Source of the DNA: Ornithodoros turicata
Lineage: Eukaryota > Arthropoda > Arachnida > Ixodida > Argasidae
Assembly (NCBI RefSeq): GCF_037126465.1
Contig: NW_026999296.1
Span: 310,001-374,000 of the forward strand
Reading direction: 5' to 3'
DNA: 64,000 bases
Part shown: piece by piece, positions 7,844 through 62,870 of the stretch
Layout: each line of letters begins with the position of its first letter
Numbering within the stretch: position 1 is the first letter of the stretch
Position numbers and translations under genes: made by a program
The notes under the pieces: model-generated
What the model saw: the letters and a program-made list of their open reading frames with translations, nothing else
Database searches by the model: none
Told to the model about the DNA's origin: nothing

Positions 7844-7849
7844 CTCATG

Positions 7850-7927
7850 GAACGATGCGACAGCACCAGAAGACACGTGTTTCGCCGTGTTTGTGGCTCG
7901 TCAGCCCTGCGTGGCTGCGCATCGTTC
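7850..7927 (-). ncRNA. Type I hammerhead ribozyme, family B copy 1
   Basis: Read on the minus strand, the core CTGACGA is at 7904-7898. Stem II follows, then GAAA and a self-complementary ACACGTGT stem III ending at the expected cleavage C. The outer stem I strands (7850-7860 and 7917-7927) pair over ten base pairs. Stem II has a changed loop edge (GCCACAAACACGGC) and the inner stem I is weakened by G-U pairs, so activity may be lower than in the next two copies. Confidence 0.75.
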
Positions 7928-8310
7928 GGGATTGGCAAACCAGGGGTCACTCAGCGAGCGATATACACCTGGGAGGGTGACTGAGCACTCCTCAATGCCA
8001 CAGTGCAAGCCAGTGAATTATAAAGAGGGGGGAAAAGCCATTAAAAAAATTCAAACTTACAGATTAAGATGGCTTCAAAATTCAAACTTACAGATTAAGA
8101 TGGCTTCTATGACTGCAATACGTGCAGCCATAGAAGCCATCTTAATCTGTAAGTTTGAATTTCAAACACGTCTAGCGTCATCTACTTATCTTTTTAATGG
8201 CTTTTTCCCCCTCTTTATAATTCACTGGCTTGCACTGTGGCATTGAGGAGTGCTCAGTCACCCTTCCAGGTGTATATCGCTCGCTGAGTGATCCCTGGTT
8301 TGCTAATCCC

Positions 8311-8388
8311 GAACGATGTGAAGCTACCCAGGGCTGACGAGCCGCAAACACGGCGAAACACGTGTCCTCTGGTGCTGTCGCATCGTTC
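8311..8388 (+). ncRNA. Type I hammerhead ribozyme, family B copy 2
   Basis: Core CTGACGA is at 8334-8340, stem II GCCG-CAAACA-CGGC at 8341-8354 and GAAA at 8355-8358. Stem III is ACACGTGT (self-complementary, two pairs plus a tetraloop if folded alone). Cleavage is expected after C8366. Inner stem I pairs CCAGGG (8328-8333) with CTCTGG (8367-8372). An outer stem I pairs GAACGATG with CATCGTTC across an internal loop, where tertiary loop contacts normally form. All invariant core positions are present. Confidence 0.85.
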
Positions 8389-8598
8389 CATGAGTATATG
8401 TTTCTCTACGTGCAGCCATAAAAGCCATCTTAATCTGTAAGTTTGAATTTCAAACACGGCTAGCGTCATTTATTTATTTTTTTAATGGCTTTTTCCCCCT
8501 CTTTATAATTCACTGGCTTGCACTGTGGCATTGAGGAGTGCTCAGTCACCCTCCCAGGTGTGTATCGCTCGCTGAGTGACCCCTGGTTTGCCAATCCC

Positions 8599-8676
8599 GA
8601 ACGATGCGAAGCTACCCAGGGCTGACGAGCCGCAAACACGGCGAAACACGTGTCCTCTGGTGCTGTCGCATCGTTC
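8599..8676 (+). ncRNA. Type I hammerhead ribozyme, family B copy 3
   Basis: This has the same architecture as the copy 288 bp upstream. The core CTGACGA is at 8622-8628, GAAA at 8643-8646, and the expected cleavage is after C8654. Its outer stem I is better, with GAACGATGCGA (8599-8609) pairing perfectly with TCGCATCGTTC (8666-8676). Confidence 0.87.
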
Positions 8677-8789
8677 CTTGAGTATATGTTTCTCTACGTG
8701 CAGCAATAGAAGCCATCTTAATCTGTAAGTTTGAATTTCAAACACGTCTAGCGTCATTTACTTATTTTTTAATGGCTTTTCCCCCTCTT

Positions 8790-8790
<1 letters not shown>

Positions 8791-8823: not shown

Positions 8824-8966
8824 GAACAAATAGGCTAATATATCAGACGGCTACGAAGTTGAATAAAAGTGAAATAATAAGACTTGGACTACAGATTACA
8901 GGAACGTTAACAAAAACTAATTTATTTAATGGGCATTTTAACACATAGATTAAAAAAAGAATGGTC

Positions 8967-8998
8967 GACGTTTCGACAGTGGCACTGTCTTCGTCAGG
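8967..8998 (-). ncRNA. Hammerhead motif, PLE type (left arm)
   Basis: On the minus strand this reads CTGACGA, stem II GACAG..CTGTC, GAAA, then ACGTC with the cleavage C. Stem III is only AC/GT with no loop, so a single copy cannot close it. Two transcripts paired through the palindromic ACGT could, as proposed for minimal PLE hammerheads. Confidence 0.6.
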
Positions 8999-8999
8999 A

Positions 9000-9035
9000 C
9001 CTGACGAAGACAGTGCCACTGTCGAAACGTCGACC
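9000..9035 (+). ncRNA. Hammerhead motif, PLE type (right arm)
   Basis: Mirror copy of the motif in the left arm. Core CTGACGA is at 9001-9007, stem II within 9008-9023, GAAA at 9024-9027, CGTC at 9028-9031, and the expected cleavage is after C9031. The core is intact. Confidence 0.6.
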
Positions 9036-9128
9036 ATTCTTTTTTTAATCTATGTGTTAAAATGCCCATTAAATAAATTAGTTTTTGTTAACGTTCCTGT
9101 AATCTGTAGTCCAAGTCTTATTATTTCA

Positions 9129-9132
<4 letters not shown>

Positions 9133-9167: not shown

Positions 9168-9171
<4 letters not shown>

Positions 9172-9300
9172 TCTACAAAATGGAGGTTCGAACGACCAGG
9201 ATGTTGTATATAGATAGGGGAGAAAAGACACCAGAGACTGAAGTAGGGAGTGGAGGAAAGTTATTTATTAAGCTGGCATTTAAACTAAGGGTCTGGGGAA

Positions 9301-9340
9301 GTCTACGTTTCGGCGGAAGCTCCGCTTTCTTCGGGACTGA
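9301..9340 (-). ncRNA. Decayed hammerhead motif in PLE1 3' terminal repeat
   Basis: The minus strand reads CCGAAGA in place of CTGANGA, then stem II (GCGGA with TCCGC), GAAA and CGTA. The U4 core position is changed to C and the cleavage triplet would be GTA. It sits where a PLE hammerhead is expected, but it is probably inactive. Confidence 0.5.
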
Positions 9341-9627
9341 GAAGAAAATCTATGTACAAGATCTTTTAAAAGGTTACAAAAGTGTCGTCACAGCCGGTAC
9401 AATTCCGCTGCGAGGCAGTCGTCAGTGAGTCATGTTCTGGAAGATTCCTTAAGGTTCCTGGGTCATCGGCCGGGAGATTACGTGTCAGAGCCTTGGAGTT
9501 CCAGAAAGGTGTGGGGTCGCGCTCGTTGAAAACCTGTTGTCCGGGGTGTTCTTAGCGTCTTTGTGTCCAGCTGTAAAGAAAAGAAGAAAAGAGGCAGCAG
9601 GCACTCCGAGGACACACAGAAAAAAAG

Positions 9628-10622
9628 TTATCCGGATATGCTTCTTACAGTTGATAGCACTCCTTTATCCTCATTTATTAAAGATTGGAATTTGCAGATC
9701 AAGTACGATTCGCGTTGCTCTATGCAGCGATCGGATGTGAAATTTGACTCTAAAATAAAAAGTGCAACGTTATTAATGGAATGACTGGGTCGACTAAAAT
9801 GGCGGGAAACCGGGAGGCTACCTTTTTTCGAAACATCTGATCGGTGGTTATTGAATGGAATCCTAAATGAATTTTTACTTTGACCTACATATTGCGCGGA
9901 GCATGTTGTATATTGAATGATATAAATAATGTTACTGGAGTTACAGTCAAAGTCGCCATTGATTTTAAGGGAGAAGTCGGAGTTTGTACTCTTGACCGCT
10001 GCCGTGCTTTGCATTGATTTGCATATTTGGCATCTTTTACCATTGCATGGATGGCATCCCGCCGTATAGGTGTTAATGGTTTGGGAACTTTGGAGTTGAC
10101 TAGTCTGTCTTGAAGGTTGCGGGCACGTCTGTGGGTAACTCGTGGCTCCTCGGCAAATATGTGTCGTGTCCGTTCAGACTGCAGAAGGATGCTATGGTGG
10201 CGGTGGAGGATACTGTTAATATTACCCGCGCCTGCACCTAAGGTAAGAACAAGGTTTACGCGGTCGCCCTTGGGTTCGTCGTTGCGTTTACCGAATAAGT
10301 TCATCCGGTCTATTTGTTGTGCTTTGGACAGGGCGTCTTTTACTAGACTGGGTGGAAAATTACGATTAACGAAGGTCTGCTCTAATTCCGCGAGGTTTTT
10401 GTTTAGAACATCGTCGTCCGAGCAGATCCTCCTGTATCGGAGTGCCTGGCTATAAGGAGTGGCGAATTTAGTATGGCGCGGGTGGCAACTGTTAAAGGAA
10501 AGGTACTGCTGAGCATCAGTTGGCTTTCGGTACAGGTCAGTGGAAAATCCCTTCTCGGTTAAGGTTACTTTTACATCTAGGAAATCAACAGTCGTTGCCG
10601 AGAAGGAGTGGGTGAACTTCAT
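9628..10622 (-). pseudogene. PLE1 RT thumb, linker and GIY-YIG endonuclease (two frames)
   Basis: Two overlapping frames (9885-10622, 245 codons; 9628-10014, 128 codons) together cover the C-terminal half of a PLE protein. The first begins after the catalytic FLDD and carries TVDFLDVKVTL, YRKPTDAQQYLSF and HPRHTKFATPYSQALRYRRI, all found again in PLE2. The second holds the endonuclease: IIYIIQ (the GIY counterpart), QYVGQS (the YIG counterpart), then FNNHRSDV and the late EQRESYLI. This nuclease is thought to nick the target for priming in PLEs. A frameshift near 10000 separates the linker from the nuclease. Confidence 0.85.
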
Positions 10623-11844
10623 GGCGGGGTGTACCAGATTGAAATCGCGAATGAATCCTGTGAGATCTTTTTCGGAGTGTCGTCCAGGAAGCGTTTGTAT
10701 AGACTAGGTTTTTTGTCGCGCACGGCTAGAAATTTTTCCTCTAGCGCGCCCATGAAAATATTTGCGTACGTTGGTGCCATCTTAGTTCCCATAGCTGTGC
10801 CATTTATTTGTAGATAGTGGCGGCCGTCAAATTCGAAGTTATTATTTTTGAGGATCAAGTTGAGTAGAGTTGGTAATACAGATTGGTCAACCGCGCGATG
10901 GGAGTACTTCAGTACGCCGCCTCCGCTGCTAGCACGCCATCCTCATGTGGGATGTTAGTGTAACCGGAGGTAACGTCTAGCGTTACAAGCAAGCCTGCAT
11001 TGGGTGGTTGGCATTTGCTAAGTAATTCGAGGAAATGGTTGGTGTCCTTAATATATGAGGGTAATCGGGGAGGTATATCTTTAAGGAGGTGGTCAACGAA
11101 GCTAGAAATTTTCTCCGTGGCGGTGCCGATTGAGGAAACTATAGGTCGCCCTGGGTTTCCCGGTTTATGGGTTTTCGGTAGCATGTAGAACCTGCCTGGT
11201 TTAGGGTTGTGGGGGGCTAGAAATTTATATAGGCAGGAGTCGATTATTTCACGCGCTTTTAGGGATTTTAGGGTTTTGGTGATTTCGGCAGCTATCTTAT
11301 TTGTTGGATCACTGTCAAGCGGCTTATAGAACGTGTTACAGCCCAGTTGTCGGAAGCCCTCGTTAAGGTAGTCCTGTTTGTTCATCACTACGATTGCCCC
11401 TTCCTTGTCTGCCCTTTTGATAATGATATCGCCACAGTTCTGTAAGTCGGAGAGGCTGCGCTGCTCAGCTGCTGTTAAATTTGGTTTAGTTTTGCGGTTA
11501 GATGAATTGTTGTATGCGTCAAGTACATCCCTTTGAACAGCCTTGATGTACATATCCAGGGCGTTGTCGCGGTTGGCATCGGGTGTGAAATCAGAAGTTG
11601 GTTTAAAGGGATTCGGATTGGAGTTAGGTTTGGTGAAAAAATATTCTTTTAGGCGCGTATGCCTTGCGAAATTGTCCAAATCAAGATGGAGTTGATGTTC
11701 ATTTAGTTTAGCGTTGTTGGGGCAGAATGACAGACCCCGATTCAGAAGTGAGAATTCTGAGTCGGTGAGGGTGCGGGATGACAAGTTCACAACGTTTTGT
11801 GATACAGTTACACGTTGTTGGACGGAAGAGGCCGCACCATCCAA
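10619..11844 (-). pseudogene. PLE1 reverse transcriptase, N-terminal and palm (broken)
   Basis: The 311-codon frame 10909-11844 carries the PLE RT fingers (DKEGAIVVMNKQDY, GRFYMLPKTHKPGNPGRPIV) and motif A. Motif A reads LVTLDVTSGYTNIPH here and LLATFDVTSVYTNIPH in PLE2, so the aspartate is kept but a hydrophobic residue has become Gly. The frame is lost shortly after. The 79-codon frame 10619-10858 carries motif B ([17 protein letters not shown]) and the catalytic RFLDD, then shifts out of frame. The fragments show RT identity beyond doubt, but no intact enzyme could be made from this copy. Confidence 0.87.
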
Positions 11845-11957
11845 TTCACCATCATGGTCACGTGGAAGTTGGGGCAGTAATATTGAGTAGAGGTGACCGT
11901 TTGTTTATTTACCGAGATACTTTCTGGGAGCGTTTCATTATTATCAGCTAAAATAGG

Positions 11958-12473
11958 TTAGCATACTCCGTCCCTGGCAAGCATTTTGCGTTTAGTTCCC
12001 GATACGAGCTGTTCACGGGACCTGCAAAATTTTGACAATTCTTCTTGATGGGCGTCGGATAATGTGGTCGTATCGTGGATGATTTTCGCTTCCCGAGAAA
12101 GTTCGTTAATGGAGTCATCGCAATGAGAGATTAGTACATCTATGAGCGCAGCAGAGGCATTTTGAACGATGTTATTCCACTGACGGGGAAGTCTATCATC
12201 GAGGGCGAATGTCGGGTTCACTTTAATGGTCAACGCTCTAGGAGTTTTTTCTTGCTCTTTGTAAAGTTTGATTGCGACGCGGTGAGAATTGTAGCGTATT
12301 TTCTTGTCGCATACTTGACGGAGCCTAAAGAACGATTCAGTCTCGGGAGATATGTCGGCGACGTATCTCCCCAGACTGAAGTGGGCTGCAAGTGGACAAT
12401 AGAATCGCTTCAGTGAACGTGTACAAGCAGTCTCATACCTAAGATTTTTGGTTTTCGGCATATCGTTCATCAT
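11958..12473 (-). pseudogene. PLE1 N-terminal region
   Basis: A 171-codon frame immediately upstream of the RT frame and on the same strand. It is basic and helical-looking (for example KKIRYNSHRVAIKLYKEQEK, LSREAKIIHDTTTLSDAHQE). I know no catalytic motif in it; its position and charge fit the variable N-terminal part of PLE proteins. It is separated from the RT frame by about 110 bp with stops, so the junction is either decayed or read through a frameshift. Confidence 0.6.
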
Positions 12474-19655: not shown

Positions 19656-19990
19656 ACTGAAAATTTGCGAACCCAGTGCAAAGCCAGTCGAGTGTATAAG
19701 GGAGAAAAAAATTAGCAGGACCTCTTTGGCTGCACGTATAGCATATGTGTATATATATGTTTGTAACTCAAACGTCGCCATGCCAGCACTGGACAGCTGT
19801 TTCGGCCTTATTGGGCCTCATCAGCAGTACGCAGGCAGGTAACGTTTGAGCGGATGGCGTCAGAAGGTCACATAACACGTGATTCCTCCTGTGAGGGTGA
19901 GGTAAATCACCACTGAAACTCCAGTGCAAAGCCAGTGAAGTATACTAGGCTACAAAATAACCGGAGCTCTTTGGCTGCACGTAAAGCTTT
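19656..19990 (-). mobile_element. Solitary family A' retrozyme-like unit
   Basis: About 1.3 copies of the 235-bp unit of the array at 20379-21862, in the same orientation: GCAAAGCCAGT, the pyrimidine-rich block, CTGCACGTATAGCATATG, then the ribozyme and the downstream half with CACGTGATTCCTCC. It differs from the array in having the intact ribozyme core, so it may represent the active ancestor of the array. Confidence 0.7.
19781..19838 (-). ncRNA. Type I hammerhead ribozyme, family A' with intact core
   Basis: Minus strand: CTGATGA (19824-19818), stem II GGCC-CAATAA-GGCC (19817-19804), GAAA (19803-19800), CAGCTGTC (19799-19792) with cleavage expected after the C at 19792. Inner stem I pairs TACTG with CAGTG (one G-U). 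An outer TGCC/GGCA helix lies across an internal loop. Stem III is the self-complementary ACAGCTGT. All invariant core residues are present. Confidence 0.85.

Positions 19991-20344: not shown

Positions 20345-20378
<34 letters not shown>
20345..20378. repeat. (TA)n tract at edge of A' array
   Basis: A pure TA run. On the right it passes into the A' unit at TATAAGGAAAAA, the unit position homologous to the 53220 junction of family A. Confidence 0.95.
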
Positions 20379-20381
<3 letters not shown>

Positions 20382-21862
20382 AAAAAAAAATAGCCAGAGC
20401 TCTTTAGTTGCACGTATAGCATATGTTTGTAACTCAAACGTCGCCATGCCAGTACTGGACAGCTGTTTCGGTCTTGTTGGGCATCATCAACAGCACGCAG
20501 GCAGGCAACGTTTGAGTAGATGGCGTCAGAAGGTTACGTAACACGTGATTCCTCCCGTCAGGGTGAGATAACTCACTCACTGAAAGCCCAGTGCAGAGCC
20601 AGTGAAGTATAAAAGGAAAAAAAAAATAGCCAGAACTCTTTAGCTGCACGTATAGCATATGTTTGTAACTCAAACGTCGCCATGCCAGTACTGGACAGCT
20701 GTTTCGGCCTTGTTGGGCCTCATCAACAGTACGCAGGCAGGCAACGTTTGAGTGGATGGCGTCAGAAGGTTACGGAACACGTGATTCCTCCCGTCAGGGT
20801 GAGATAACTCACTCATTGAAAGCCCAGTGCAAAGCCAGTGAAGTATAAAAGAAAAAAAAAATAGCCAGAGCTCTTTAGCTGCACGTATAGCATATGTTTG
20901 TAACTCAAACGTCGCCATGCCAGTACTGGACAGCTGTTTCGGCCTTGTTGGGCCTCATCAACAGTACGCAGGCAGGCAACGTTTGAGTGGATGGGGTCAG
21001 AAGGTTACGTAACACGTGATTCCTCCCGTCAGGGTGAGATAACTCACTCACTGAAAGCCCAGTGCAAAGCCAGCGAAGTATAAAAGGAAAAAAAAAATAG
21101 CCAGAGCTCTTTAGCTGCACGTATAGCATATGTTTGTAACTCAAACGTCGCCATGCCAGTACTGGACAGCTGTTTCTGCCTTGTTGGGCCTCATCAACAG
21201 TACGCAGGCAGGCAACGTTTGAGTGGATGGCGTCAGAAGGTTACGTAACACGTGATTCCTCCCGTCAGGGTGAGATAACTCACTCACTGAAAGCCCAGTG
21301 CAAAGTCAGTGAAGTATAAAAGAAAAAAAAATAGCCAGAGCTCTTTAGCTGCACGTATAGCATATGTTTGTAACTCAAACGTCGCCATGCCAGTACTGGA
21401 CAGCTGTTTCGGCCTTGTTGGGCCTCATCAACAGTACGCAGGCAGGCAACGTTTGAGTGGATGGCGTCAGAAGGGTACGTAACACGTGATTTCTCCCGTT
21501 AGGGTGAGATAACTCACTCACTGAAAGCCCAGTGCAAAGCCAGTGAAGTATAAAAGGAAAAAAAATTAGCCAGAGCTCTTTAGCTGCACGTATAGCATAT
21601 GTTTGTAACTCAAACGTCGCCATGCCAGTACTGGACAGCTGTTTCGGCCTTGTTGGGCCTCATCAACAGTACGCAGGCAGGCAACGTTTGAGTGGGTGGC
21701 GTCAGAAGGTTACGTAACACGTGATTCCTCCCGTCAGGGTGAGATAACCCACTCACTGAAAGCACAGTGCAAAGCCAGTGAAGTATAAAAGTAAAAAAAA
21801 ATAGCCAGAGCTGTTTAGCTGCACGTATAGCATGTGTTTGTAACTCAAACGTCGCTATGCCT
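20379..21862 (-). mobile_element. Family A' hammerhead repeat array (about 6.3 units)
   Basis: Direct repeats of 235-236 bp, with CAAACGTCGCC starting at 20434, 20670, 20905, 21141, 21375, 21610 and a truncated one at 21845. The unit is clearly homologous to the 236-bp unit at 50096-53220 in order of blocks, with many substitutions between them. All six complete ribozymes in the array carry the same core change (TTGATGA for CTGATGA), so the change predates amplification of the array. It sits directly downstream of PLE2 on the same strand, in the place of a 3' terminal repeat. Short minus-strand frames repeated in each unit are a by-product of the repetition. Confidence 0.8.
20435..21690 (-). 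ncRNA. Six hammerhead relatives with C3-to-U core
   Basis: Each copy (about 80 bp, outer stem starts near 20435, 20671, 20906, 21142, 21376 and 21611) keeps stem I (GTACTG with CAGTAC), stem II GGCC-CAACAA-GGCC, GAAA and the palindromic stem III, but has U for the invariant C3. Pairing of position 3 with G8 is needed for catalysis, so a U-G wobble there should severely slow cleavage. The first copy has further damage in stem II and the fourth has a changed stem II to GAAA junction. Confidence 0.7.
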
Positions 21863-21933
21863 GTGCAGCAGGACCTTGAGGAAATGCCAGTGAGCCTGAA
21901 AAAGAGACAAAAGAGCATATGTATTGTGCTGGG

Positions 21934-23046
21934 TTAGGAATGCAGGTTGCGAATAGCAGAAATGATTCCTGGATCTTCGTTTATCTGACACTGGAATTTA
22001 TGAATGAGATAAGATTCGCGCTGTTCCCTGAGCCGCTGGGAAGGAAAGCCTGACTGCAGGGTGAAAATAGATATGTTGGTGATTGAGTGTCCTGGTTTAC
22101 TGAAATGGCGCGACACTGGCAGATTAGGTGTCTTCGCGACGTCAGATTTGTGGTTATTGAATCGCGTTCTAAATGACGTAGCTGTCTGTCCGATATATTG
22201 GGCGTTGCATTCATTGCATTGAAGAAGATAGACAACATTGGAAGAATTACAGTTAAAGTCGCCATTAACGTTGACCCGATAATTAGAATTGGTACTTTCT
22301 GCAGAGTTAGCGGCTTGCATTGATTTACAAATTTGGCATCTACTTGCATTGCAAGGGTGGCAACCAATGTTATTTTCTGGAAGTTTGTTAATTTTGGCAT
22401 TTACTAGTCTGTCTTGGATGTTCCGCGCCCGGCGATAACTTATGCGCGGTGGCTGTGAGAATATTTCCTTCATCCGATCAGGTTGTGAAAGAATTGTGTA
22501 GTGGCTGTTGAGTATCCGGCTAATGTTAGGAACGCTGCCATTGAATGTGACAGTGAGATTTACTGCAGAGTTTCCATTGGTTCGAGGAGATCTTTGGAGC
22601 AATTGCTGGCGATCTGTGGATCTTGCCCTGGCTATAGCGTCTTTCACAAGTTTGTCCGGGTATTCACGATCAATGAAGGTTTGTTCTAGTCGTTTGAGAT
22701 GGTTGTCTAGTTCAGCATCGTTAGTGCATATTCTGCGGTAGCGCAATGCTTGACTATAAGGTATGGCTAACTTAGTATGTCTTGGATGGCAACTGCGGAA
22801 CGATAAGTACTGCTGAGCATCTGTAGGCTCCCGGTATAAGTTGGTTGAGATACTGCCGTTTTGTAACTTGACTTCCACATCCAAGAAGGTAACAGTGGAG
22901 GCGGAGTAGTGAGAGGCAAATTGAATGTTAGGGTGAATTTGGTTGAACCGGTTGATGAACGTGAGAAGGTCGCTTTCAGAATGAGGCCATATGATAAAAA
23001 TATCGTCTAAAAATCTCTTGTACACAAGTGGTTTCAGTAAAAGCAA
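21934..23046 (-). pseudogene. PLE2 RT catalytic box to GIY-YIG endonuclease
   Basis: A 370-codon uninterrupted frame. Near residues 9-20 is KRFLDDIFIIW, the catalytic DD box of PLE reverse transcriptase. Then come VTFLDVEVKL, YREPTDAQQYLSF and HPRHTKLAIPYSQALRYRRI. The linker has a Cys cluster (CHPCNASRCQIC). The endonuclease follows: VVYLLQC (GIY counterpart), QYIGQT (YIG), then FRTRFNNHKSDV and EQRESYLIHKF near the C-terminus. Reverse transcription and target nicking are known functions of these domains. It cannot be translated from its own start as a whole PLE; it belongs to the frame that ends near 23034. Confidence 0.88.
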
Positions 23047-23757
23047 GTGGTTTCAGTGGTTACGGAACATTCGAGAAATGTTTCCTTCAGGGATGCCATG
23101 AAGATATTTGCATAGTTGGGGGCCATTCTCGTGCCCATAGCTGTCCCGTTAACTTGCAGATAATGCTTGTTATCAAATTCAAAGTTATTGGAGGTCAAAA
23201 TAAGTGTTAGCAGTTCGGTGAGGACTGTCGGATCATACGGCTGGTCAGGTTGATTTTTGTATGCTGAAACGGCCGCTGCTATACCATCTGCGTGGGGAAT
23301 ATTAGTGTAAACGGACGTGACGTCAAACGTTGCCAAGAGACAGCTTGAGGGAACGGTTACTTGCGATACAGTTTGAAGGAAATGATTGGTGTCTTTGACG
23401 TAGGAAGGTAATTTAGGGGGGATAGATTTAAGAACGTGATCGACGAAGGACGATATATTTTCTGTAGCGGTACCGTTACTGGACAGAATTGGTCTTCCGG
23501 GATTGCCTGGTTTATGTATCTTAGGGAGCATGTAAAATCGGCCTGGTTTAGGGTCTCTAGGAAGTAAGTATTCGTAGAGCGCATCGCCAATTTTCTTAGT
23601 GGCCTTTAACCGTTTTAGTGTTTTACATATATCAGCGGCAATTTCATTGGTGGGGTCGGATTCGAGAGGTTTGTAACAGTCTCCACAATTAAGTTGACGG
23701 AGTCCTTCCGCCACATAAGCTTGCTTATCCATTACGACTATGGCACCTCCTTTAGCT
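23034..23757 (-). pseudogene. PLE2 RT fingers and palm (upstream frame)
   Basis: A 232-codon frame in the expected order: KQAYVAEGLRQLNC, GRFYMLPKIHKPGNPGRPIL, motif A (LLATFDVTSVYTNIPH) and motif B (NGTAMGTRMAPNYANIF). It leaves frame just before the catalytic box because of a local duplication in which AGTGGTTTCAGT occurs twice, around 23027 and 23047. Apart from this break the RT motifs are intact, so the element may have decayed only recently, or the break could be a sequencing artefact. Confidence 0.87.
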
Positions 23758-23764
23758 ATTTAGA

Positions 23765-24037
23765 CTATGGCACCTCCTCACTTAGTCACCAACCTGTGTT
23801 AGTCATGACAAAAGCGCATGCGCTGCTCTCTTTCCCTCGTACATAACCCTCTCCCATATATAAAGCTTGTTCTTGTCACCAAACCCCAGTCCCGTCGAAT
23901 GCAGCGCTGACTGCCGAAACGTCGACTCCTATCCCTATATGTGTTATAAACTCCCCTTTGTGTTTTCCTGTAAGCTCTTTGTCGTCTTCTGATTTTTCCT
24001 GCTTATTTCATTCTCGTGGTCAACCGCCCTCCTAAGC

Positions 24038-24042
<5 letters not shown>
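23765..24042 (+). mobile_element. PLE terminal-repeat fragment
   Basis: Plus-strand non-coding piece with the layout of the PLE terminal repeats: TATATAAAGCTTG, then a degenerate hammerhead motif GCTGACTGCCGAAACGTC (23906-23923), then GACTCC..TTATAAACTCCC..TTTTCCTGTAAG, ending at a (TA)n tract. Stem II of the motif is almost gone, so no activity is expected. It is in the opposite orientation to PLE2, as PLE terminal repeats often are. Confidence 0.5.

Positions 24043-24090
<48 letters not shown>
24043..24090. repeat. (TA)n tract bounding the PLE2 block
   Basis: A pure AT run of about 48 bp at the outer edge of the PLE terminal fragment. Confidence 0.95.
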
Positions 24091-39819: not shown

Positions 39820-39885
39820 CCTTGACTGGTAGAATAAAATAAATGTGTAGAGGCTCTAGTGGAATATATCACGTGATAAGATTTT

Positions 39886-40365: not shown

Positions 40366-40914
40366 TTAATTAAATCATATTGGTGGTAATTTTATTTATT
40401 AAAAATTTATTATCGCGTTTAGAATGTTCCACCTGCCGTGAGAATTATGAAATTCAATTTACAAAATAGATGTGATGTGTAAGAAAAAAAACGTTTGCTT
40501 TCAATGATTCTATGTACAAGACAGCGCTAGAGCCCCTCCTTCCCTAACTTGACTTGCTGGAGTCGGTTTATGGCTTTGTATACCAAGACTATTGCTCGAT
40601 TCCCCTACTCCCTGCGGGCGTAACCTTAACGAAAGTGTACGGGAACTCAGCTTCCCTCTCTCACTTCGTTTCCACTAGTGGGTCCTGAATGAAAAATACG
40701 TGTTTCTGTGATGTATATTTGCGCTGCGTGGTTAGGAAAATGTTTGCCAAAATTAATTACTGCTTTGACTATGTTTCAGATGATCACTCGATTGATATTA
40801 ATAAAAATATTCTATTAGTTTGGAATGTTGTGTGCGTTGATTTCCGCTGTAGCAAACACTATAATTTACATTTCAGATGAGTTGATTGTGGCTTCTGCAT
40901 GTATTGCAAAGTTA

Positions 40915-41496
40915 TCATAAAAAATATGTAATTAAATTTGTTTCTCGTTTTCGAATTAGTATTGTTTCTATCACTGAATAAACTTGACTTTCACTCGATT
41001 GATATTTTGTGATTTGAGAATAATGATTGCCTAATAGTTGTGTCTGATCTGAAACGTTTCTCGTTGAGTATTGTTTGCACCGATAACATTTTCTCGTTTG
41101 CTTAGAAAGTCTATTCTTAGATTTTTGCGTTCTATTGTTTTTTGATAGAATTCTTATTGTGTTCTTGAGAGTCGAATAATTCCAATGTCTATTTGCGATC
41201 AATAAAAAAATTCGTCTCTGTACACCGAACCTAAGAATATTTCCTTTTGGAGAAAAGAATGTGAAAAAGAGAGGGGATTTCCCCACCCCCAGATTGACAA
41301 CAGGTTCCATGCTTTGGGCTGTATAGATGGAGAGAGTGACCCCACCGGGCTGCATAGAGGGAGAGAGTGACCCCCCGGGTCTCGAGTCTTGTTGTACTGT
41401 GTAAAGCATAGATGTGGTGCGTGTTTTGGATAGCTCTGTCAAGGTAATGTTTATAGTGCCTGAGTAGGATGAAAATTCTATATTGTTAGCTCGCAA
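40915..41496 (-). CDS. Hypothetical open frame, 193 aa, repeat-containing
   Basis: Minus-strand frame with a short tandem duplication (PGGSLSPSMQPGGVTLSIY) encoded by two copies of a roughly 30-bp GGGGTCACTCTCTCC unit. The C-terminal half is rich in Asn, Thr, Lys and Arg, as is common in AT-rich non-coding DNA. The left-arm counterpart (34109-34330) shares the first residues and then diverges by frameshift. No domain is recognised. Confidence 0.2.
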   Translation of the reverse strand: MRANNIEFSSYSGTINITLTELSKTRTTSMLYTVQQDSRPGGSLSPSMQPGGVTLSIYTAQSMEPVVNLGVGKSPLFFTFFSPKGNILRFGVQRRIFLLIANRHWNYSTLKNTIRILSKNNRTQKSKNRLSKQTRKCYRCKQYSTRNVSDQTQLLGNHYSQITKYQSSESQVYSVIETILIRKRETNLITYFL

Positions 41497-48790: not shown

Positions 48791-49971
48791 GAGAGCGTTG
48801 CAAGAAACAAGGATGGAAACGCGCGCAGGGTCGTCTCCTAGTGCTGGATGTCTCCCGAAGCATTTGCGCAATTTCGCCGGCAGAGGAACGAAAAGCAGCG
48901 GCCCTGTAGGCGCTGCACAACGCATATTTCGAAGCCATGGTCGCATTTTATTGCTCCTCGATCACAGACCGTGGTACCAAAAAGTCCCATGCGAATTACC
49001 GAAATAGCTTTTATGCGACTTGATTAACTTCGCTGCAAGAGGAGACGGTGGATTGTGACAGTTTGGCGGCATTTCCTCTCTAGAAAAGTCATACGATAGC
49101 GACAAATGATTGCACGCCTCTGACAAAGATGAGCTGCCTGAGCGACCTGAGCCACATTACAGATGCGTATCACTTAAGCTCGGAAGACACAACAAGAAGA
49201 AAGAAAACAAACGCAGTTGCCAAACAGTGGAGTTGTGACATTCAAGCGTTCCACAACTTTATCGGGGTGGAAGACATAGAAATAGTTGTGGCGGCCCGTG
49301 GAAGACGACGATGACGCGCCTCTGCTGCCGCGCGTTACTGCGCTAGGCATAGCCCGCCATATTAGGCAGCCAGTTCTACCGGCACCGTGCTAGCGCGAGG
49401 CCACGACCATCTGCCCGCTGGGACATTCCATCATCGCCGGTCAGGACTCATGCAGGGGAACACCACTTCCTCTACACAGTGAAGCGTAAGCGAATTGTGG
49501 AGGCATAGATGTGGTCCCCGCGCAACAAGCTCTGGGTAGCCTCCACGGAGGCAAAGTCATTGTATGCTTATGATCAATGCTTATGGTCAGGTCTGTATAC
49601 TCAAAATGCATTCTCTCTGTCTCTCAAAATACACGTCACTAGCGATTCTGACCATAGGGCACAAACGGCTGGTCGTGAATAGTCTGTTGCTTGTCGGCAA
49701 TGTTCCTCTGTGTCGAATTACGAACGAATTGTTCGAAACAATTTATCATAACCACGATAAACCTGCATTTCAAACCGGCCGACAGACAGAATAAATATTG
49801 ACACTGGAAGCGATTCCACATGACCTGATTACAAAGATGCTTACGTGGTTCTTATGCTTTGCGTGATCACGTTCTTCTCTCCGCGCAGGTGCTCAAGATC
49901 GCACAACCTGCTTTCAGTGCGGCAACTCTCTTTGCAGTTGGAGCGATGAGGACGACCCGTTATTTGAACAC
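48791..49971. other. No recognised gene; possible LTR-like start at 49289
   Basis: TGTGGCGGCCCGTGGAAGAC (49289) opens a GC-rich stretch of about 250 bp that could be an LTR fragment. No partner or target duplication is visible. The rest is unrecognised. Confidence 0.25.
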
Positions 49972-50071: not shown

Positions 50072-50250
50072 CCGTATCAATCCGCCGACCATGCGGACTT
50101 ATAAACATATGTTCAACGTGCAGCCAAAGAGCGTATGCTATTTTTCTTCATTTATTACTTTACTGGCTTCGCACTGGGCTTTCAGAGGTGAGTCGCTCAC
50201 CCTGACGGGAGGAAATCACGTTCCACGTGACCTTCCGACGCCACTCGCTC

Positions 50251-50329
50251 AAACGTCGCCCACCTACGCATTGCTGATGAAGGCCCAGTAAGGCCGAAAC
50301 AGCTGTCCAATGCTGGTGTGGCGACGTTT
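50251..50329 (+). ncRNA. Type I hammerhead ribozyme, family A unit 1
   Basis: Core CTGATGA is at 50274-50280, stem II GGCC-CAGTAA-GGCC at 50282-50295 and GAAA at 50296-50299. Stem III is ACAGCTGT (self-complementary; two pairs with an AGCT loop if folded alone), with cleavage expected after C50307. Inner stem I pairs GCATTG (50268-50273) perfectly with CAATGC (50308-50313). Across an internal loop the outer stem pairs CACC/GGTG and AAACGTCGCC/GGCGACGTTT. Every invariant residue and all three helices are present, so I expect an active ribozyme. Confidence 0.92.
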
Positions 50330-50486
50330 GGGACTTATAAACATATGTTCAACGTGCAGCCAAAGAGCGTATGCTATTTTTCTTCATTTATTACTTTACT
50401 GGCTTCGCACTGGGCTTTCAGAGGTGAGTCGCTCACCCTGACGGGAGGAAATCACGTTCCACGTGACCTTCCGACGCCACTCGCTC

Positions 50487-53161
50487 AAACGTCGCCCACC
50501 TACGCATTGCTGATGAAGGCCCAATAAGGCCGAAACAGCTGTCCAATGCTGGTGTGGCGACGTTTGGGACTTATAAACATATGTTCAACGTGCAGCCAAA
50601 GAGCGTATGCTATTTTTCTTCATTTATTACTTTACTGGCTTCGCACTGGGCTTTCAGAGGTGAGTCGCTCACCCTGACGGGAGGAAATCACGTTCCACGT
50701 GACCTTCCGACGCCACTCGCTCAAACGTCGCCCACCTACGCATTGCTGATGAAGGCCCAATAAGGCCGAAACAGCTGTCCAATGCTGGTGTGGCGACGTT
50801 TGGGACTTATAAACATATGTTCAACGTGCAGCCAAAGAGCGTATGCTATTTTTCTTCATTTATTACTTTACTGGCTTCGCACTGGGCTTTCAGAGGTGAG
50901 TCGCTCACCCTGACGGGAGGAAATCACGTTCCACGTGACCTTCCGACGCCACTCGCTCAAACGTCGCCCACCTACGCATTGCTGATGAAGGCCCAATAAG
51001 GCCGAAACAGCTGTCCAATGCTGGTGTGGCGACGTTTGGGACTTATAAACATATGTTCAACGTGCAGCCAAAGAGCGTATGCTATTTTTCTTCATTTATT
51101 ACTTTACTGGCTTCGCACTGGGCTTTCAGAGGTGAGTCGCTCACCCTGACGGGAGGAAATCACGTTCCACGTGACCTTCCGACGCCACTCGCTCAAACGT
51201 CGCCCACCTACGCATTGCTGATGAAGGCCCAATAAGGCCGAAACAGCTGTCCAATGCTGGTGTGGCGACGTTTGGGACTTATAAACATATGTTCAACGTG
51301 CAGCCAAAGAGCGTATGCTATTTTTCTTCATTTATTACTTTACTGGCTTCGCACTGGGCTTTCAGAGGTGAGTCGCTCACCCTGACGGGAGGAAATCACG
51401 TTCCACGTGACCTTCCGACGCCACTCGCTCAAACGTCGCCCACCTACGCATTGCTGATGAAGGCCCAATAAGGCCGAAACAGCTGTCCAATGCTGGTGTG
51501 GCGACGTTTGGGACTTATAAACATATGTTCAACGTGCAGCCAAAGAGCGTATGCTATTTTTCTTCATTTATTACTTTACTGGCTTCGCACTGGGCTTTCA
51601 GAGGTGAGTCGCTCACCCTGACGGGAGGAAATCACGTTCCACGTGACCTTCCGACGCCACTCGCTCAAACGTCGCCCACCTACGCATTGCTGATGAAGGC
51701 CCAATAAGGCCGAAACAGCTGTCCAATGCTGGTGTGGCGACGTTTGGGACTTATAAACATATGTTCAACGTGCAGCCAAAGAGCGTATGCTATTTTTCTT
51801 CATTTATTACTTTACTGGCTTCGCACTGGGCTTTCAGAGGTGAGTCGCTCACCCTGACGGGAGGAAATCACGTTCCACGTGACCTTCCGACGCCACTCGC
51901 TCAAACGTCGCCCACCTACGCATTGCTGATGAAGGCCCAATAAGGCCGAAACAGCTGTCCAATGCTGGTGTGGCGACGTTTGGGACTTATAAACATATGT
52001 TCAACGTGCAGCCAAAGAGCGTATGCTATTTTTCTTCATTTATTACTTTACTGGCTTCGCACTGGGCTTTCAGAGGTGAGTCGCTCACCCTGACGGGAGG
52101 AAATCACGTTCCACGTGACCTTCCGACGCCACTCGCTCAAACGTCGCCCACCTACGCATTGCTGATGAAGGCCCAATAAGGCCGAAACAGCTGTCCAATG
52201 CTGGTGTGGCGACGTTTGGGACTTATAAACATATGTTCAACGTGCAGCCAAAGAGCGTATGCTATTTTTCTTCATTTATTACTTTACTGGCTTCGCACTG
52301 GGCTTTCAGAGGTGAGTCGCTCACCCTGACGGGAGGAAATCACGTTCCACGTGACCTTCCGACGCCACTCGCTCAAACGTCGCCCACCTACGCATTGCTG
52401 ATGAAGGCCCAATAAGGCCGAAACAGCTGTCCAATGCTGGTGTGGCGACGTTTGGGACTTATAAACATATGTTCAACGTGCAGCCAAAGAGCGTATGCTA
52501 TTTTTCTTCATTTATTACTTTACTGGCTTCGCACTGGGCTTTCAGAGGTGAGTCGCTCACCCTGACGGGAGGAAATCACGTTCCACGTGACCTTCCGACG
52601 CCACTCGCTCAAACGTCGCCCACCTACGCATTGCTGATGAAGGCCCAATAAGGCCGAAACAGCTGTCCAATGCTGGTGTGGCGACGTTTGGGACTTATAA
52701 ACATATGTTCAACGTGCAGCCAAAGAGCGTATGCTATTTTTCTTCATTTATTACTTTACTGGCTTCGCACTGGGCTTTCAGAGGTGAGTCGCTCACCCTG
52801 ACGGGAGGAAATCACGTTCCACGTGACCTTCCGACGCCACTCGCTCAAACGTCGCCCACCTACGCATTGCTGATGAAGGCCCAATAAGGCCGAAACAGCT
52901 GTCCAATGCTGGTGTGGCGACGTTTGGGACTTATAAACATATGTTCAACGTGCAGCCAAAGAGCGTATGCTATTTTTCTTCATTTATTACTTTACTGGCT
53001 TCGCACTGGGCTTTCAGAGGTGAGTCGCTCACCCTGACGGGAGGAAATCACGTTCCACGTGACCTTCCGACGCCACTCGCTCAAACGTCGCCCACCTACG
53101 CATTGCTGATGAAGGCCCAATAAGGCCGAAACAGCTGTCCAATGCTGGTGTGGCGACGTTT
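50487..53161 (+). ncRNA. Hammerhead ribozymes, family A units 2-13
   Basis: Twelve further copies, each 79 bp, starting at 50487 and every 236 bp to 53083. All keep the same core, stems and cleavage site as unit 1 and differ from it only in the stem II loop (CAATAA). Confidence 0.92.
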
Positions 53162-53220
53162 GGGACTTATAAACATATGTTCAACGTGCAGCCAAAGAGC
53201 GTATGCTATTTTTCTTCATT

Positions 53221-53240
53221 TATATATATATATATATATA
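53221..53240. repeat. (TA)n tract ending the family A array
   Basis: The array breaks at CTTCATT(TAT) and continues as TA repeats, the position homologous to the 20378 junction of A'. Confidence 0.95.
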
Positions 53241-53325
53241 CAGAAGAAATAAGTTCGCACAGAGCACCACCAAAGGAATATTTTCAGATGACTTCATTTA
53301 ATTCATTTTGAAATTACACAGACAC

Positions 53326-53360
53326 GACGTTTCGAACGGTGGACCGTTCTTTTTCAAGTG
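53326..53360 (-). ncRNA. Variant hammerhead motif (left arm)
   Basis: Minus strand: TTGAAAA in place of CTGANGA, stem II GAACGG-TCCA-CCGTTC (six perfect pairs), GAAA, CGTC. Positions 3 and 8 are U and A instead of C and G, so the pair between them could be kept. Activity is uncertain. Confidence 0.45.
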
Positions 53361-53516
53361 AAAAGATTACGTGCAAAACACACTCGACAGGACCCCGCAC
53401 AAAGAATTTATGACCTCCCTTCGGCAACCTCAACGCACTGCGATTTCCCTTCCCCCGCCACTGTCGAAGCACACGAAAGTGAGTGTTTTCTGTTTGACCA
53501 ACTCATTATATCTTTT

Positions 53517-53551
53517 CACTTGAAAAAGAACGGTCCACCGTTCGAAACGTC
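53517..53551 (+). ncRNA. Variant hammerhead motif (right arm)
   Basis: Mirror image of the left-arm motif with the same U3/A8 combination and perfect stem II. Confidence 0.45.
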
Positions 53552-53681
53552 GTGTCTGTGTAATTTCAAAATGAATTAAATGAAGTCATCTGAAAATATT
53601 CCTTTGGTGGTGCTCTGTGCGAACTTATTTCTTCTGTGTATTAATACGGCGCCGTCTGAATCTTCAAGACCTTCAAGAGAG

Positions 53682-53700
53682 TATATATATATATATATAT
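53682..53700. repeat. (TA)n tract, left edge of PLE3
   Basis: A pure TA run directly followed by the PLE3 terminal repeat (AGAAGTTCAAAAAAAGACGC). Confidence 0.95.
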
Positions 53701-53798
53701 AGAAGTTCAAAAAAAGACGCGGAAACAGATTTTAGGGAAGTTAAAAACACTAGTTTATTACGTGGGGAGACGTTAAAAAGTAAAATGGGCAAGGGGTC

Positions 53799-53831
53799 GA
53801 CGTTTCGACAGTGGCACTGTCTTCGTCAGGA
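53799..53831 (-). ncRNA. Hammerhead motif in PLE3 left terminal repeat
   Basis: Minus strand: CTGACGA (53829-53823), stem II GACAG..CTGTC, GAAA, CGTC. It is identical over the core to the motifs at 8967-9035. Stem III (AC/GT) has no loop, so dimeric folding would be needed. Confidence 0.62.
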
Positions 53832-53877
53832 CAAAAGATGCGTAACTGATTACACATTTCTTAAATAGGTTTGCTAC

Positions 53878-54405
53878 ATGACGTACATGACGTACATGAC
53901 ATACAGGCGCGGGCGCAACCTTCACGATAATCTAGTTAGCTCTAAAGTTAGCAAAGCAGCGCATCCAGGAAACGGCTGTCACCCGTGCGATGGTCGAAGG
54001 TGTCAAATATGCAAATTAATGCAAAGCACCCAAGTACTTAAAAGTACAAATTCCAATTTTTCCGTCAAAATTAATGGTGACTTCGACTGTAATTCATCTA
54101 ACGTCATTTATGTCATTCAGTGCGGCATGTGCCAAGCACAATACGTAGGTCAGACTAAAACATCATTTCGGATCAGGTTCAACAACCACCGATCTGACGT
54201 TACCAAAAAGCCAAACCTCCCGGTCTCTCGCCATTTCAAACAACCAGGTCATTCACTAAATAACGTGTCACTTTTTATTCTCCAGTCAAATTTTAGCTCA
54301 GATCGGTGCAGGGAACAACGCGAATCTTATCTCATTTACAAATTCCAATCAACCATTAACGAAGATCTGGGAGCACTTTCAACGGTAAGAAATTTGGCCG
54401 CCTAG
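53878..54405 (+). CDS. PLE3 GIY-YIG endonuclease (RT-less remnant)
   Basis: A 175-codon intact frame. After a short MTYMTYMTYRRGR start made from the repeated ACATGACGT sequence, it has the PLE linker with a Cys cluster CHPCDGRRCQIC (about residues 34-45), then the nuclease: VIYVIQC (GIY, about 75-81), QYVGQT (YIG, about 88-93), FRIRFNNHRSDV (Arg and Asn/His), LPVSRHFKQPGH, and EQRESYLIYKF with the late catalytic Glu region. The apparent start lies in repeat DNA, so the frame is probably a truncation product rather than a selected gene. Absence of stops suggests recent insertion. Confidence 0.8.
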   Translation: MTYMTYMTYRRGRNLHDNLVSSKVSKAAHPGNGCHPCDGRRCQICKLMQSTQVLKSTNSNFSVKINGDFDCNSSNVIYVIQCGMCQAQYVGQTKTSFRIRFNNHRSDVTKKPNLPVSRHFKQPGHSLNNVSLFILQSNFSSDRCREQRESYLIYKFQSTINEDLGALSTVRNLAA

Positions 54406-54676
54406 ATGAGCTACACTTTCCTCCTTTTCGTTTCCCTTCTGTTTTTCTTTTCTTTTTTTTCTTTTTCAGCAAAGTTTGAAGCAGCGCTCACCCTGCCCGG
54501 AATTTTCCCCAAAGCGGACAGTGACCTACGGCGAATGACATCACCACCCGGACTTGACCTTCTGGAATATTCCCGAATCTGACTCACTGACAAACGCCTG
54601 TGGCGTGCCCGTACCGATTATACGTCATGTAGCAAACCTATTTAAGAAATGTGTAATCAGCTACGCATCTTTTGTC

Positions 54677-54707
54677 CTGACGAAGACAGTGCCACTGTCG
54701 AAACGTC
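54677..54707 (+). ncRNA. Hammerhead motif in PLE3 right terminal repeat
   Basis: Core CTGACGA is at 54677-54683, stem II within 54684-54699, GAAA at 54700-54703 and CGTC at 54704-54707. Same form as the left copy, on the coding strand of the element. Confidence 0.62.
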
Positions 54708-54842
54708 GACCCCTTGCCCATTTTACTTTTTAACGTCTCCCCATGTAATAAACTAGTGTTTTTAACTTCCCTAAAATCTGTTTCCGCGTCTTTTTTTGAA
54801 CTTCTGTAAAACTTCGTGGCCGTTTGATAATCCTTTTACCTC

Positions 54843-54846
<4 letters not shown>

Positions 54847-54882: not shown

Positions 54883-54885
<3 letters not shown>

Positions 54886-54895
54886 CTACTCCGGG

Positions 54896-55062
54896 CCGAC
54901 GAGCCGCAAACACGGCGAAACACGTGTCCTCTAGTGCTGTCGCATCGTTCAATGAGTATCTGTTTCTCTACGTGCAGCCATAGAAGCCATTTTAATCTGT
55001 AAGTTTGAATTTCAAACACGTCTAGCATCATTTACTTATTTTTTTAGTGGCTTTTCTCCCCT

Positions 55063-55104
<42 letters not shown>

Positions 55105-55713
55105 AGGGGGAAAGCCATTAAAAAAATAGGTAAATGATGCTAGACGTGTTTGAAACTCAAACTTACAGTTAAGATGGCTTCTATGGCTGCACGTAGAGAA
55201 ACAGATACTCATTGAACGATGCGACAGCACCAGAGGACACGTGTTTCGCCGTGTTTGCGGCTCGTCGGCCCTGGGTAGCTGCGCATCGTTCGGAATTGGC
55301 AAACCAGGGGTCACTCAGCGAGCGATATACACCTGGGAGGGTGACCGAGCACTCCTCAATGCCACAGTGCAAGCCAGTGAATTATAAAGAGGGGGGGAAA
55401 GCCATTAAAAAAATAGGTAAATGATGCTAGACGTGTTTGAAACTCAAACTTACAGTTAAGATGGCTTCTATGGCTGCACGTAGAGAAACAGATACTCATT
55501 GAACGATGCGACAGCACCAGAGGACACGTGTTTCGCCGTGTTTGCGGCTCGTCGGCCCTGGGTAGCTGCGCATCGTTCGGAATTGGCAAACCAGGGGTCA
55601 CTCAGCGAGCGAGTGACCCCTGGTTTGCCAATTCCGAACGATGCGCAGCTACCCAGGGCCGACGAGCCGCAAACACGGCGAAACACGTGTCCTCTGGTGC
55701 TGTCGCATCGTTC
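54896..55713. ncRNA. Four hammerhead relatives with U4-to-C core
   Basis: Copies at about 54896-54945 (plus), 55214-55291 (minus), 55501-55578 (minus) and 55636-55713 (plus). Stem II GCCG-CAAACA-CGGC, GAAA, ACACGTGT and the long outer stem I (GAACGATGCG with CGCATCGTTC) are kept; the first copy lacks its 5' outer strand. U4 is an invariant core base, so cleavage should be strongly reduced. Confidence 0.72.
55066..55101. repeat. (TA)n tract inside family B' block
   Basis: Joins two copies in opposite orientation. Both sides break at the same unit position (CTCTTTATA). Confidence 0.95.
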
Positions 55714-55721
55714 AATGAGTA

Positions 55722-55723
<2 letters not shown>

Positions 55724-62589: not shown

Positions 62590-62870
62590 TGTCGTGTCCA
62601 ACAGATACCGCTTGCGTAGCGCTGTCGTATGAATGTGTGCGTGGGAGAGAAAGCATGTAAGACTGAAAGTGGAATGAGTGAGTGAGTGGATGTCGTTGTC
62701 TCTTCAACTGACACAATCTTGCGTGTCCTTGGGGAGATGTGTAGGCTTAGCGCAATTGGTATAGCCTTGGACCGCCAATCCAGAAGATGTGGGTTCCAGT
62801 CCTACAGCTCGCTAACCTTTTCAGTGACATCTTTCTTTCATTCTTCCTATGTATTTCCACGTTTGGTGCA
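62590..62870 (+). mobile_element. tRNA-like SINE, intronic copy
   Basis: Best-preserved copy of the 44.2-44.7 kb family: leader (CCAACAGATACCGCTTGCG, GTATGAATGTGTGCGTGG, GAAAGTGGAATGAGTGAGTG), box A TAGCGCAATTGGTA (62748-62761), box B GGGTTCCAGTCCT (62791-62803), and tail CTCGCTAACCTTTTCAGTGA. The A to B distance fits a tRNA. It is antisense to the IAP gene and ends about 65 bp from a splice donor. Confidence 0.72.

What the first reader, a model, noticed from the sequence alone, without database searches (positions are those of the whole stretch)
50096..53220. Thirteen 236-bp repeats, each with a complete type I hammerhead ribozyme (retrozyme array)
Seen: every unit has CTGATGA, GGCC stem II, GAAA, palindromic stem III, and a stem I that pairs for 6 bp and then 14 more across an internal loop. 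Known: small non-coding tandem repeats with type I hammerheads occur in animal genomes and give small circular RNAs (retrozymes). Inferred: this is an active or very recently active retrozyme locus, since the units are almost identical.
Basis: partly seen in the sequence, partly recalled or inferred. Interest (0 to 1): 0.92.

Follow-up and report, generated by a model that had tools for sequence, protein, structure and literature searches.

The report
Tick retrozymes inserted the Penelope way
A tick genome carries a 236-letter repeat with a predicted self-cutting ribozyme, 13 times in a row here and at dozens of other places, and its copies end and sit in the DNA the way Penelope retrotransposons do, so Penelope enzymes likely spread it by copying its predicted RNA circle round and round.

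Summary
In detail: 13 full 236-bp units plus a partial one at 50095-53223, one substitution in all, each with a type I hammerhead. Two corrections: the core has an extra A after CUGAUGA, and the array starts 24 nt after a 100-N gap, so 13 is a minimum. Tick retrozymes are known; the array is a new member of a known kind. New is how it got there. Of 14 independent head-to-head insertions with both ends classed, 13 have one arm at each site. Penelope-like elements (PLEs) here show the same design: TA targets, head-to-head arms, two end sites 35-46 nt apart. At 20345-24090 one insertion between TA tracts fuses a PLE to a 6.3-unit retrozyme array; 39 of 39 other scored PLE copies stop matching at that joint. 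PLE machinery therefore likely makes these arrays by reverse-transcribing circular RNA at a cut target. Cleavage, circular RNA and the enzyme were not tested; there is one chimera only.

The parts
50095..53223 (+). Focal retrozyme array, 13 full 236-bp units and a partial one; 3' end at site A
50256..50331 (+). Hammerhead of unit 1 (the same every 236 bp); predicted cut after C50307
49972..50071 (.). 100-N assembly gap just left of the array
53221..53240 (.). TA tract shared by the array end and a PLE-type end
53231..53646 (.). PLE-type insertion, head-to-head arms
53698..54846 (+). PLE fragment with GIY-YIG domain, 188-nt inverted ends, one short and one long 3' end (42 nt apart) at TA tracts
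54883..55065 (+). Partial unit of the 287-bp retrozyme family between TA tracts
55102..55723 (.). Head-to-head insertion of the 287-bp family (minus arm about 1.7 units, plus arm 0.4 unit), TA tract at each end, arms end at different sites
7844..8790 (.). Head-to-head insertion of the 287/288-bp family, TA tract at each end, arms end at different sites
8824..9132 (.). PLE-type palindrome with hammerhead-like centre; short and long 3' ends 42 nt apart at TA tracts
9168..12473 (-). PLE (frames broken up), GIY-YIG-like C-terminus
20345..20378 (.). (TA)17 at the retrozyme end of the chimera
20379..21861 (-). 235-bp retrozyme array, 6.3 units, 3' end at site A; joined to PLE sequence at its 5' end
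21862..24042 (-). PLE part of the chimera: RT and GIY-YIG frames, about 72 nt of 3'UTR up to the joint, inverted PLE 3' end at the far side
24043..24090 (.). (TA)24 at the PLE end of the chimera
19672..19982 (-). Older retrozyme fragment without the extra A, not at a TA tract

Best explanation
The array at 50095-53223 belongs to a young family of hammerhead retrozymes of a soft tick, likely Ornithodoros turicata, and was likely made by a Penelope-like reverse transcriptase that copied one predicted RNA circle round and round from a cut TA tract. Shown by sequence: the units; the hammerhead pairing with covariation; two fixed 3' ends, A and B; the TA neighbours; head-to-head arms, one at A and the other at B; private variants shared by the units and by both arms of an insertion; one PLE-retrozyme fusion. 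Inferred: the transcript of an array cuts itself at each hammerhead; a host ligase closes the pieces into circles; the PLE protein (reverse transcriptase plus GIY-YIG endonuclease) cuts both strands of AT-rich DNA; each 3' end primes cDNA at A or B; the enzyme runs round the circle many times and the two cDNAs are joined head to head. In the chimera the enzyme would have left the retrozyme circle and gone on along a PLE RNA.
For: Ends: 42 of 46 array 3' ends in 27 loci and the window are at site A (17) or B (25); 36 of 46 have TA/AT repeats of 4 or more units within 40 nt. Pairs: 14 of 17 head-to-head pairs are A+B (13 of 16 after counting L057/L060 once; 13 of the 14 with both ends classed), p about 6e-4 under independent choice; the two 287-family pairs of the window also end at different sites. 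Shared flanking stretches of 14 and 15 bases, edges blurred by the unit, in two insertions outside long TA tracts (L047, L059). One template: three variants in 13 of 13 focal units; private variants in both arms of L051, L056, L073, L074. PLE parity: 10 of 10 TA tracts of 7 or more repeats in the window touch a PLE or retrozyme end (one search read); six of six PLE families were seen at two end sites; 25 neighbouring PLE pairs head to head, 9 tandem, 0 tail to tail. Chimera: 5 of 5 other PLE copies read continue their 3'UTR past the joint; 39 of 39 other scored copies match only the PLE side of it. Enzyme source: 30 of 110 scored copies of that PLE family have open frames of 914 aa or more. 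Literature: a purified PLE cuts and extends both strands at AT-rich DNA and starts inside its RNA at two adjacent sites (PMC11167929); Penelope inserts with inverted arms and a 31-bp tail on one of them (PMC3846280, passages).
Against: No RNA or enzyme data. One chimera only; 12 further 5' flanks gave none. L066 is A+A, L045 and L052 have other ends. L048, L054, L062 and L066 showed no flanking duplication. A and B are 42-45 nt apart in the 236 family but about 104 nt in the 287 family. Sequence likeness of the B-A stretch to PLE tails is weak: rank 1 of 236 for one family, 7 of 235 for the other, with an antisense control of 10.5 and 10.2 against 12.4 and 6.6. L044 and L056 contain variants shared by subsets of units, so some later reshuffling happened. 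The lowest-energy monomer fold is not the active one (-42.7 against -37.5 kcal/mol). The loci were chosen by likeness to the focal unit.
Confidence: 0.77

Rival explanations
1. Satellite DNA: the units multiplied in place by unequal crossing-over, and the hammerhead is a passenger.
For: Tandem order; near-identity; L057 and L060, with the same flanks, differ in length (about 10 against 2 units); variants shared by subsets of units in L044 and L056.
Against: At least 35 dispersed loci (my grouping); two fixed 3' ends in 42 of 46 cases; head-to-head arms with the A+B rule; array-wide private variants shared by both arms; flanking duplications.
Confidence: 0.06
2. The retrozyme is copied by the cell's LINE machinery, not by PLEs; the resemblance to PLE insertions comes from TA-rich targets in general.
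For: An earlier paper saw 15-bp duplications in Nematostella repeats like those of LINEs (PMC4918200, passage); no enzyme was tested here.
Against: Both-strand priming, two neighbouring start sites and head-to-head arms are PLE traits; the one fusion found is with a PLE. LINE fusions were not searched for.
Confidence: 0.1
3. Second arms come from snap-back self-priming of one cDNA, not from priming at both target ends.
For: The 55-kb joint can fold as a hairpin, GTCACTC-AGCGAGC-GAGTGAC; both arms share variants; self-priming was proposed for rotifer Penelope (PMC3846280, passage).
Against: A snap-back arm should end anywhere or at the site of the first arm; instead 13 of 14 classed independent pairs end at the other site.
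Confidence: 0.15
4. The 20345-24090 chimera is two separate insertions, the array having landed in a PLE that later lost its 3' end.
For: Single example; the PLE half is damaged (two overlapping frames).
Against: No TA tract at the joint, same orientation, retrozyme 3' end at site A in TA, and the other TA-flanked end is the same PLE family's normal 3' end. A deletion that removed the PLE 3' end and a TA tract cleanly is possible but is an extra step.
Confidence: 0.2

Closest known systems
Metazoan non-LTR retrozymes (Cervera and de la Pena 2020, PMC7229834, parts 1-4 of 6 read; Argas monolakensis example in PMC4918200, passages read)
   Same: Tandem non-coding units of 170-400 bp with type I hammerheads, many dispersed loci, PLEs in the same genome
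   Different: Head-to-head arms, two fixed start sites, TA targets and a PLE fusion are not described in the parts read; extra A in the core; unit GC 50.8%, just above the reported <50%
Penelope-like elements with GIY-YIG endonuclease (PMC11167929, parts 1-3 of 4 read; PMC3846280, passages read)
   Same: Insertion anatomy: AT-rich target, inverted arms, a tail on one arm, short target duplications, tandem copies, type I hammerhead motifs
   Different: The retrozyme unit encodes no protein and is a complete canonical-type hammerhead in 236 bp; PLE hammerheads are minimal
Plant LTR retrozymes (PMC4918200, passages read)
   Same: Hammerhead-bounded non-coding RNA circles spread by another element's enzyme
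   Different: Type III hammerheads, LTRs, PBS and PPT, 4-bp duplications, thought to use Gypsy machinery
CChMVd (+) hammerhead (recalled, not read here)
   Same: A natural hammerhead with one extra A between A9 and stem II (recalled)
   Different: A plant viroid with another hammerhead topology

Membership tests
Metazoan non-LTR retrozyme | short tandem repeats (about 150-450 bp) without coding capacity | tested here: met
   236-bp units; no frame of 120 aa or more listed in 50095-53223
Metazoan non-LTR retrozyme | a type I hammerhead in each unit | tested here: met
   13 of 13 units; covarying stems. Rfam cut-off not reached by the focal array but reached by three related arrays
Metazoan non-LTR retrozyme | self-cleavage in vitro | not testable with these tools
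   needs a bench test
Metazoan non-LTR retrozyme | expressed as linear and circular monomer RNA | not testable with these tools
   no RNA data at hand
Metazoan non-LTR retrozyme | target duplications, where seen, longer than 4 bp | tested here: met
   shared stretches of 14 and 15 bases in L047 and L059; none found in L048, L054, L062, L066
Metazoan non-LTR retrozyme | GC below 50% (reported as typical, not as a criterion) | tested here: not met
   50.8% for the 236-bp unit
Metazoan non-LTR retrozyme | no LTR, PBS or PPT | not tested
   no LTR seen; PBS and PPT not searched for
Penelope-like element (works like / moved by) | encodes RT and GIY-YIG endonuclease | tested here: not met
   the array encodes no such protein; it is not a PLE. 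PLEs with GIY-YIG lie beside it
Penelope-like element (works like / moved by) | head-to-head arms, tail on one arm, AT-rich target | tested here: met
   14 of 17 pairs A+B; 36 of 46 ends at TA repeats; same in PLEs of this genome
Penelope-like element (works like / moved by) | PLE protein starts cDNA on the retrozyme circle | not testable with these tools
   only the fusion at 20345-24090 bears on it
Satellite DNA | local arrays without fixed insertion ends | tested here: not met
   42 of 46 ends at two sites, dispersed loci

The most novel reading that the evidence does not exclude
One RNA circle serves both sides of the cut: a pair of PLE enzymes holds a single retrozyme circle at its two start sites, one starting at A and the other at B, and both run round it, so every full insertion is a head-to-head pair of rolling-circle copies of one molecule. 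The retrozyme would be a PLE end recast as a circle, and rolling-circle target-primed reverse transcription a regular route by which PLE enzymes build tandem repeats in animal genomes.
Probability: 0.33. Interest if true: 0.87.

Novelty: new variant of a known kind. Interest (0 to 1): 0.74.

Why it matters
Which enzyme moves animal retrozymes is an open question: the 2020 paper calls PLEs a 'strong candidate' because of shared hammerheads, tandem copies and coexistence (PMC7229834). Here retrozyme insertions carry the PLE insertion signature, and one insertion joins the two elements. That makes the question directly testable with a purified PLE protein, a 236-nt circle and a TA target, and offers a reason why such arrays exist: they would be the cDNA of a circle.

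Tried and rejected
PLE-tail mimicry just downstream of site A: local alignments of five PLE tails to three units gave no consistent match there (15 comparisons; whole-unit shuffle p 0.017-0.98). The later test of the B-A stretch gave weak support only.

Arms from two different circles: one search seemed to show private variants in one arm only. That came from loose arm limits and a 'fixed in every unit' rule; with exact arms the multi-unit private variants of L051, L056, L073 and L074 are in both arms. The claim is withdrawn. Single-unit differences between arms remain in L047, L059, L064 and L073 and may be later mutations; L065 is mixed.

26831-27957 (206-bp repeats) as another retrozyme: no Rfam match up to E 1.

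Relatives in other collections: 0 hits in viral contigs; four hits of a 20-mer in genome contigs are Paraburkholderia records, taken as chance and not followed.

A second chimera: no direct PLE fusion at 12 further 5' or outer flanks, nor in the 24 nt before the focal array (some PLE queries came from the same loci, so self-hits were set aside). A haplotype without the focal array: the left flank has a 100% inverted copy at C14:199841-200901 and no full-identity unit was listed near it; not followed.

Rows dropped: one search dropped matches under 88% identity and segments of 60 nt or less. L057 and L060 share flanks and count once.

Literature: no paper on PLE-retrozyme fusions or on PLE or retrozyme insertion in TA repeats was found; the library holds openly licensed papers only. 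PMC8557442, PMC4209133 and PMC5785218 are not held. Papers were seen as a listing only.

Full report
What was given. TRF gives 50095-53223, period 236, 13.3 copies; the 13 full units differ by one base in total. The core pattern occurs 13 times and never in 100 shuffles. Two details were missed. Between CTGATGA and stem II there is one extra A; 197 of 206 cores matched by a pattern in the window and 27 loci have it, and the rest belong mostly to the 235-bp family, so it is a family trait and not damage. From memory, the CChMVd (+) hammerhead has an extra A at the same place. And the array begins 24 nt after a 100-N gap, so the unit count is a minimum and the left neighbour may be only a scaffold join.

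Is it a hammerhead? Rfam does not accept the focal array (best 27.1 bits against a cut-off of 52) but accepts hits in related arrays of the same window. On 12 distinct sequences, 96.1% of 282 cells pair, and 52 cells are changed on both sides against at most 6 when the pairing is slid. Stem III is a palindrome, ACAG|CUGU, or 2 bp and the tetraloop AGCU. In the free monomer the lowest-energy fold pairs GCUG with CAGC and is not the active one (-42.7 against -37.5 kcal/mol). As a circle the unit folds at -85.3 kcal/mol, z -5.5 against 100 mononucleotide shuffles. Cleavage was not tested.

Whose genome. The PLE protein of the window has its best match, 62% identity, in Ornithodoros turicata, and two contigs of the window's genome have exactly the lengths of contigs named O. 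turicata there (150342175 and 83779437 bases). A tick retrozyme (Argas monolakensis) was already drawn in PMC4918200 (legend). The array as such is a new member of a known kind.

The surroundings. The window holds ten TA tracts of seven or more repeats; all ten touch a retrozyme or PLE end on at least one side (read). Insertions at 7844-8790 and 55102-55723 (287/288-bp family) are two arrays head to head between TA tracts. PLE-type insertions at 8824-9132, 53231-53646 and 53698-54846 are head to head too. Two of these have one short and one long 3' end, 42 nt apart in both; the third ends at the same site on both sides.

The genome-wide test. A search with one unit gave 254 matches, a lower bound, the listed ones 98-100% identical. 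I read 27 of the 34 non-window loci in the shown list. A script located 46 array 3' ends in these loci and the window: 17 at site A (unit positions 77-88 from the predicted cut), 25 at site B (34-39), 4 elsewhere; 36 of 46 have TA repeats of 4 or more units within 40 nt. Uniform ends would give this with a chance of about 1e-34, the two windows having been chosen after the fact. Of 17 head-to-head pairs 14 are A+B, 1 is A+A (L066) and 2 have other ends (L045, L052). L057 and L060 share flanks, so 13 of 14 classed independent pairs are A+B, p about 6e-4 under independent choice. Of 12 segments without a partner of the same family 10 end at B, 1 elsewhere, and the focal array, whose left side is in the gap, ends at A. 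Two insertions outside long TA tracts, both A+B, share flanking stretches of 14 and 15 bases (L047, L059); by eye the duplications proper are about 12 and 11 bp. Four other loci without a long TA tract at one or both ends showed none (L048, L054, L062, L066).

One template per insertion. All 13 focal units share three variants against the family majority. Private variants are in both arms of L051 (12/13 and 10/10), L056 (32/32 and 3/3), L073 (3/3 and 2/2) and L074 (4/4 and 4/4); L065 is mixed (1/2 and 2/2). Many other variants are singletons, but L044 and L056 also have variants shared by subsets of units. This fits copying of one circle, or of circles from one source, many times round, with some later reshuffling. 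An earlier script that seemed to show different arms was wrong.

PLE parity. Six PLE families met in these loci were each found at two end sites; read these are 35-46 nt apart, mostly 40-42. In the 236-bp retrozyme A and B are 42-45 nt apart; in the 287 family about 104 nt, an exception. Among 110 listed PLE matches, neighbours within 9 kb are head to head 25 times, tandem 9 times and never tail to tail. Published work agrees: a purified anole PLE cuts and extends both strands at AT-rich sites and starts inside its RNA at two adjacent sites (PMC11167929); rotifer Penelope insertions have inverted arms, a 31-bp tail optionally on one of them, and 8-10-bp duplications (PMC3846280, passages). The block that starts at site A is the best local alignment between the 235 and 287 families (E 1.5e-6), as expected of a start signal under selection; for 236 against 287 that block and the hammerhead score alike. 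Direct likeness of the B-A stretch to PLE tails is weak.

The chimera. At 20345-24090 one insertion between TA tracts runs: (TA)24, an inverted PLE 3' end, PLE RT and GIY-YIG frames, about 72 nt of PLE 3'UTR, 6.3 retrozyme units, site A, (TA)17. In 5 of 5 other copies read, the PLE 3'UTR runs on past the joint: in three of them for about 285 nt to its long end, in one to a short end at TA, and L072 to the same long end without a TA tract (L068 has CT repeats before TA). In the search with the joint itself, 39 of 39 other scored PLE copies match only the PLE side, 38 of them ending at base 125 and one at 127 of the query, and only the window copy spans it (40 of 914 candidates scored). It is therefore a private event among the scored copies. 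The simplest reading is a template switch from retrozyme to PLE RNA within one reverse-transcription run. The same PLE family has 30 of 110 scored copies with open frames of 914 aa or more, so a source of enzyme is plausible.

Conclusion. The retrozyme identification stands. The mechanism that fits best is PLE-driven, twin-primed, rolling-circle reverse transcription of a self-cleaved circle. The DNA anatomy is shown; cleavage, circle and enzyme are inferred. The main limits are the single chimera, the absence of RNA data, and loci chosen because they match the focal unit.

Noticed in passing
window 33024-42577: A palindrome of about 9.5 kb, low in GC (about 0.36-0.39), arms mostly 91-99% complementary, with a 159-aa frame on one arm and broken remnants of it on the other; no Pfam match for that frame.
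   Followed up: partly
window 20379-21861 (-): All six aligned units of the 235-bp array have U at hammerhead core position 3 (TTGATGA), which should weaken cleavage; yet a circle seems to have been copied.
   Followed up: partly
window 54884-55697: Three of three aligned hammerheads of the 55-kb insertions have CCGACGA in place of CTGACGA.
   Followed up: no
window 26831-27957: Another tandem repeat, about 206 bp, 85% alike; no Rfam match.
   Followed up: partly
window 48900-49960: This left flank has a 100% identical inverted copy 158 kb away on the same contig (C14:199841-200901), so the contig may hold a large inverted duplication or a misjoin.
   Followed up: no
G000:C3:106824423-106837050: A large array of Hammerhead_1 matches with a spacing of 233 bp, over 40 listed units, the longest retrozyme-like array seen.
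   Followed up: no
L057 (C136) and L060 (C9): The same flanks (98.6-99.4% identical) with about 10 units in one and about 2 in the other: two haplotypes, a duplication, or an assembly difference.
   Followed up: partly
window 62741-62813: A tRNA match on the + strand, 34.8 bits.
   Followed up: no
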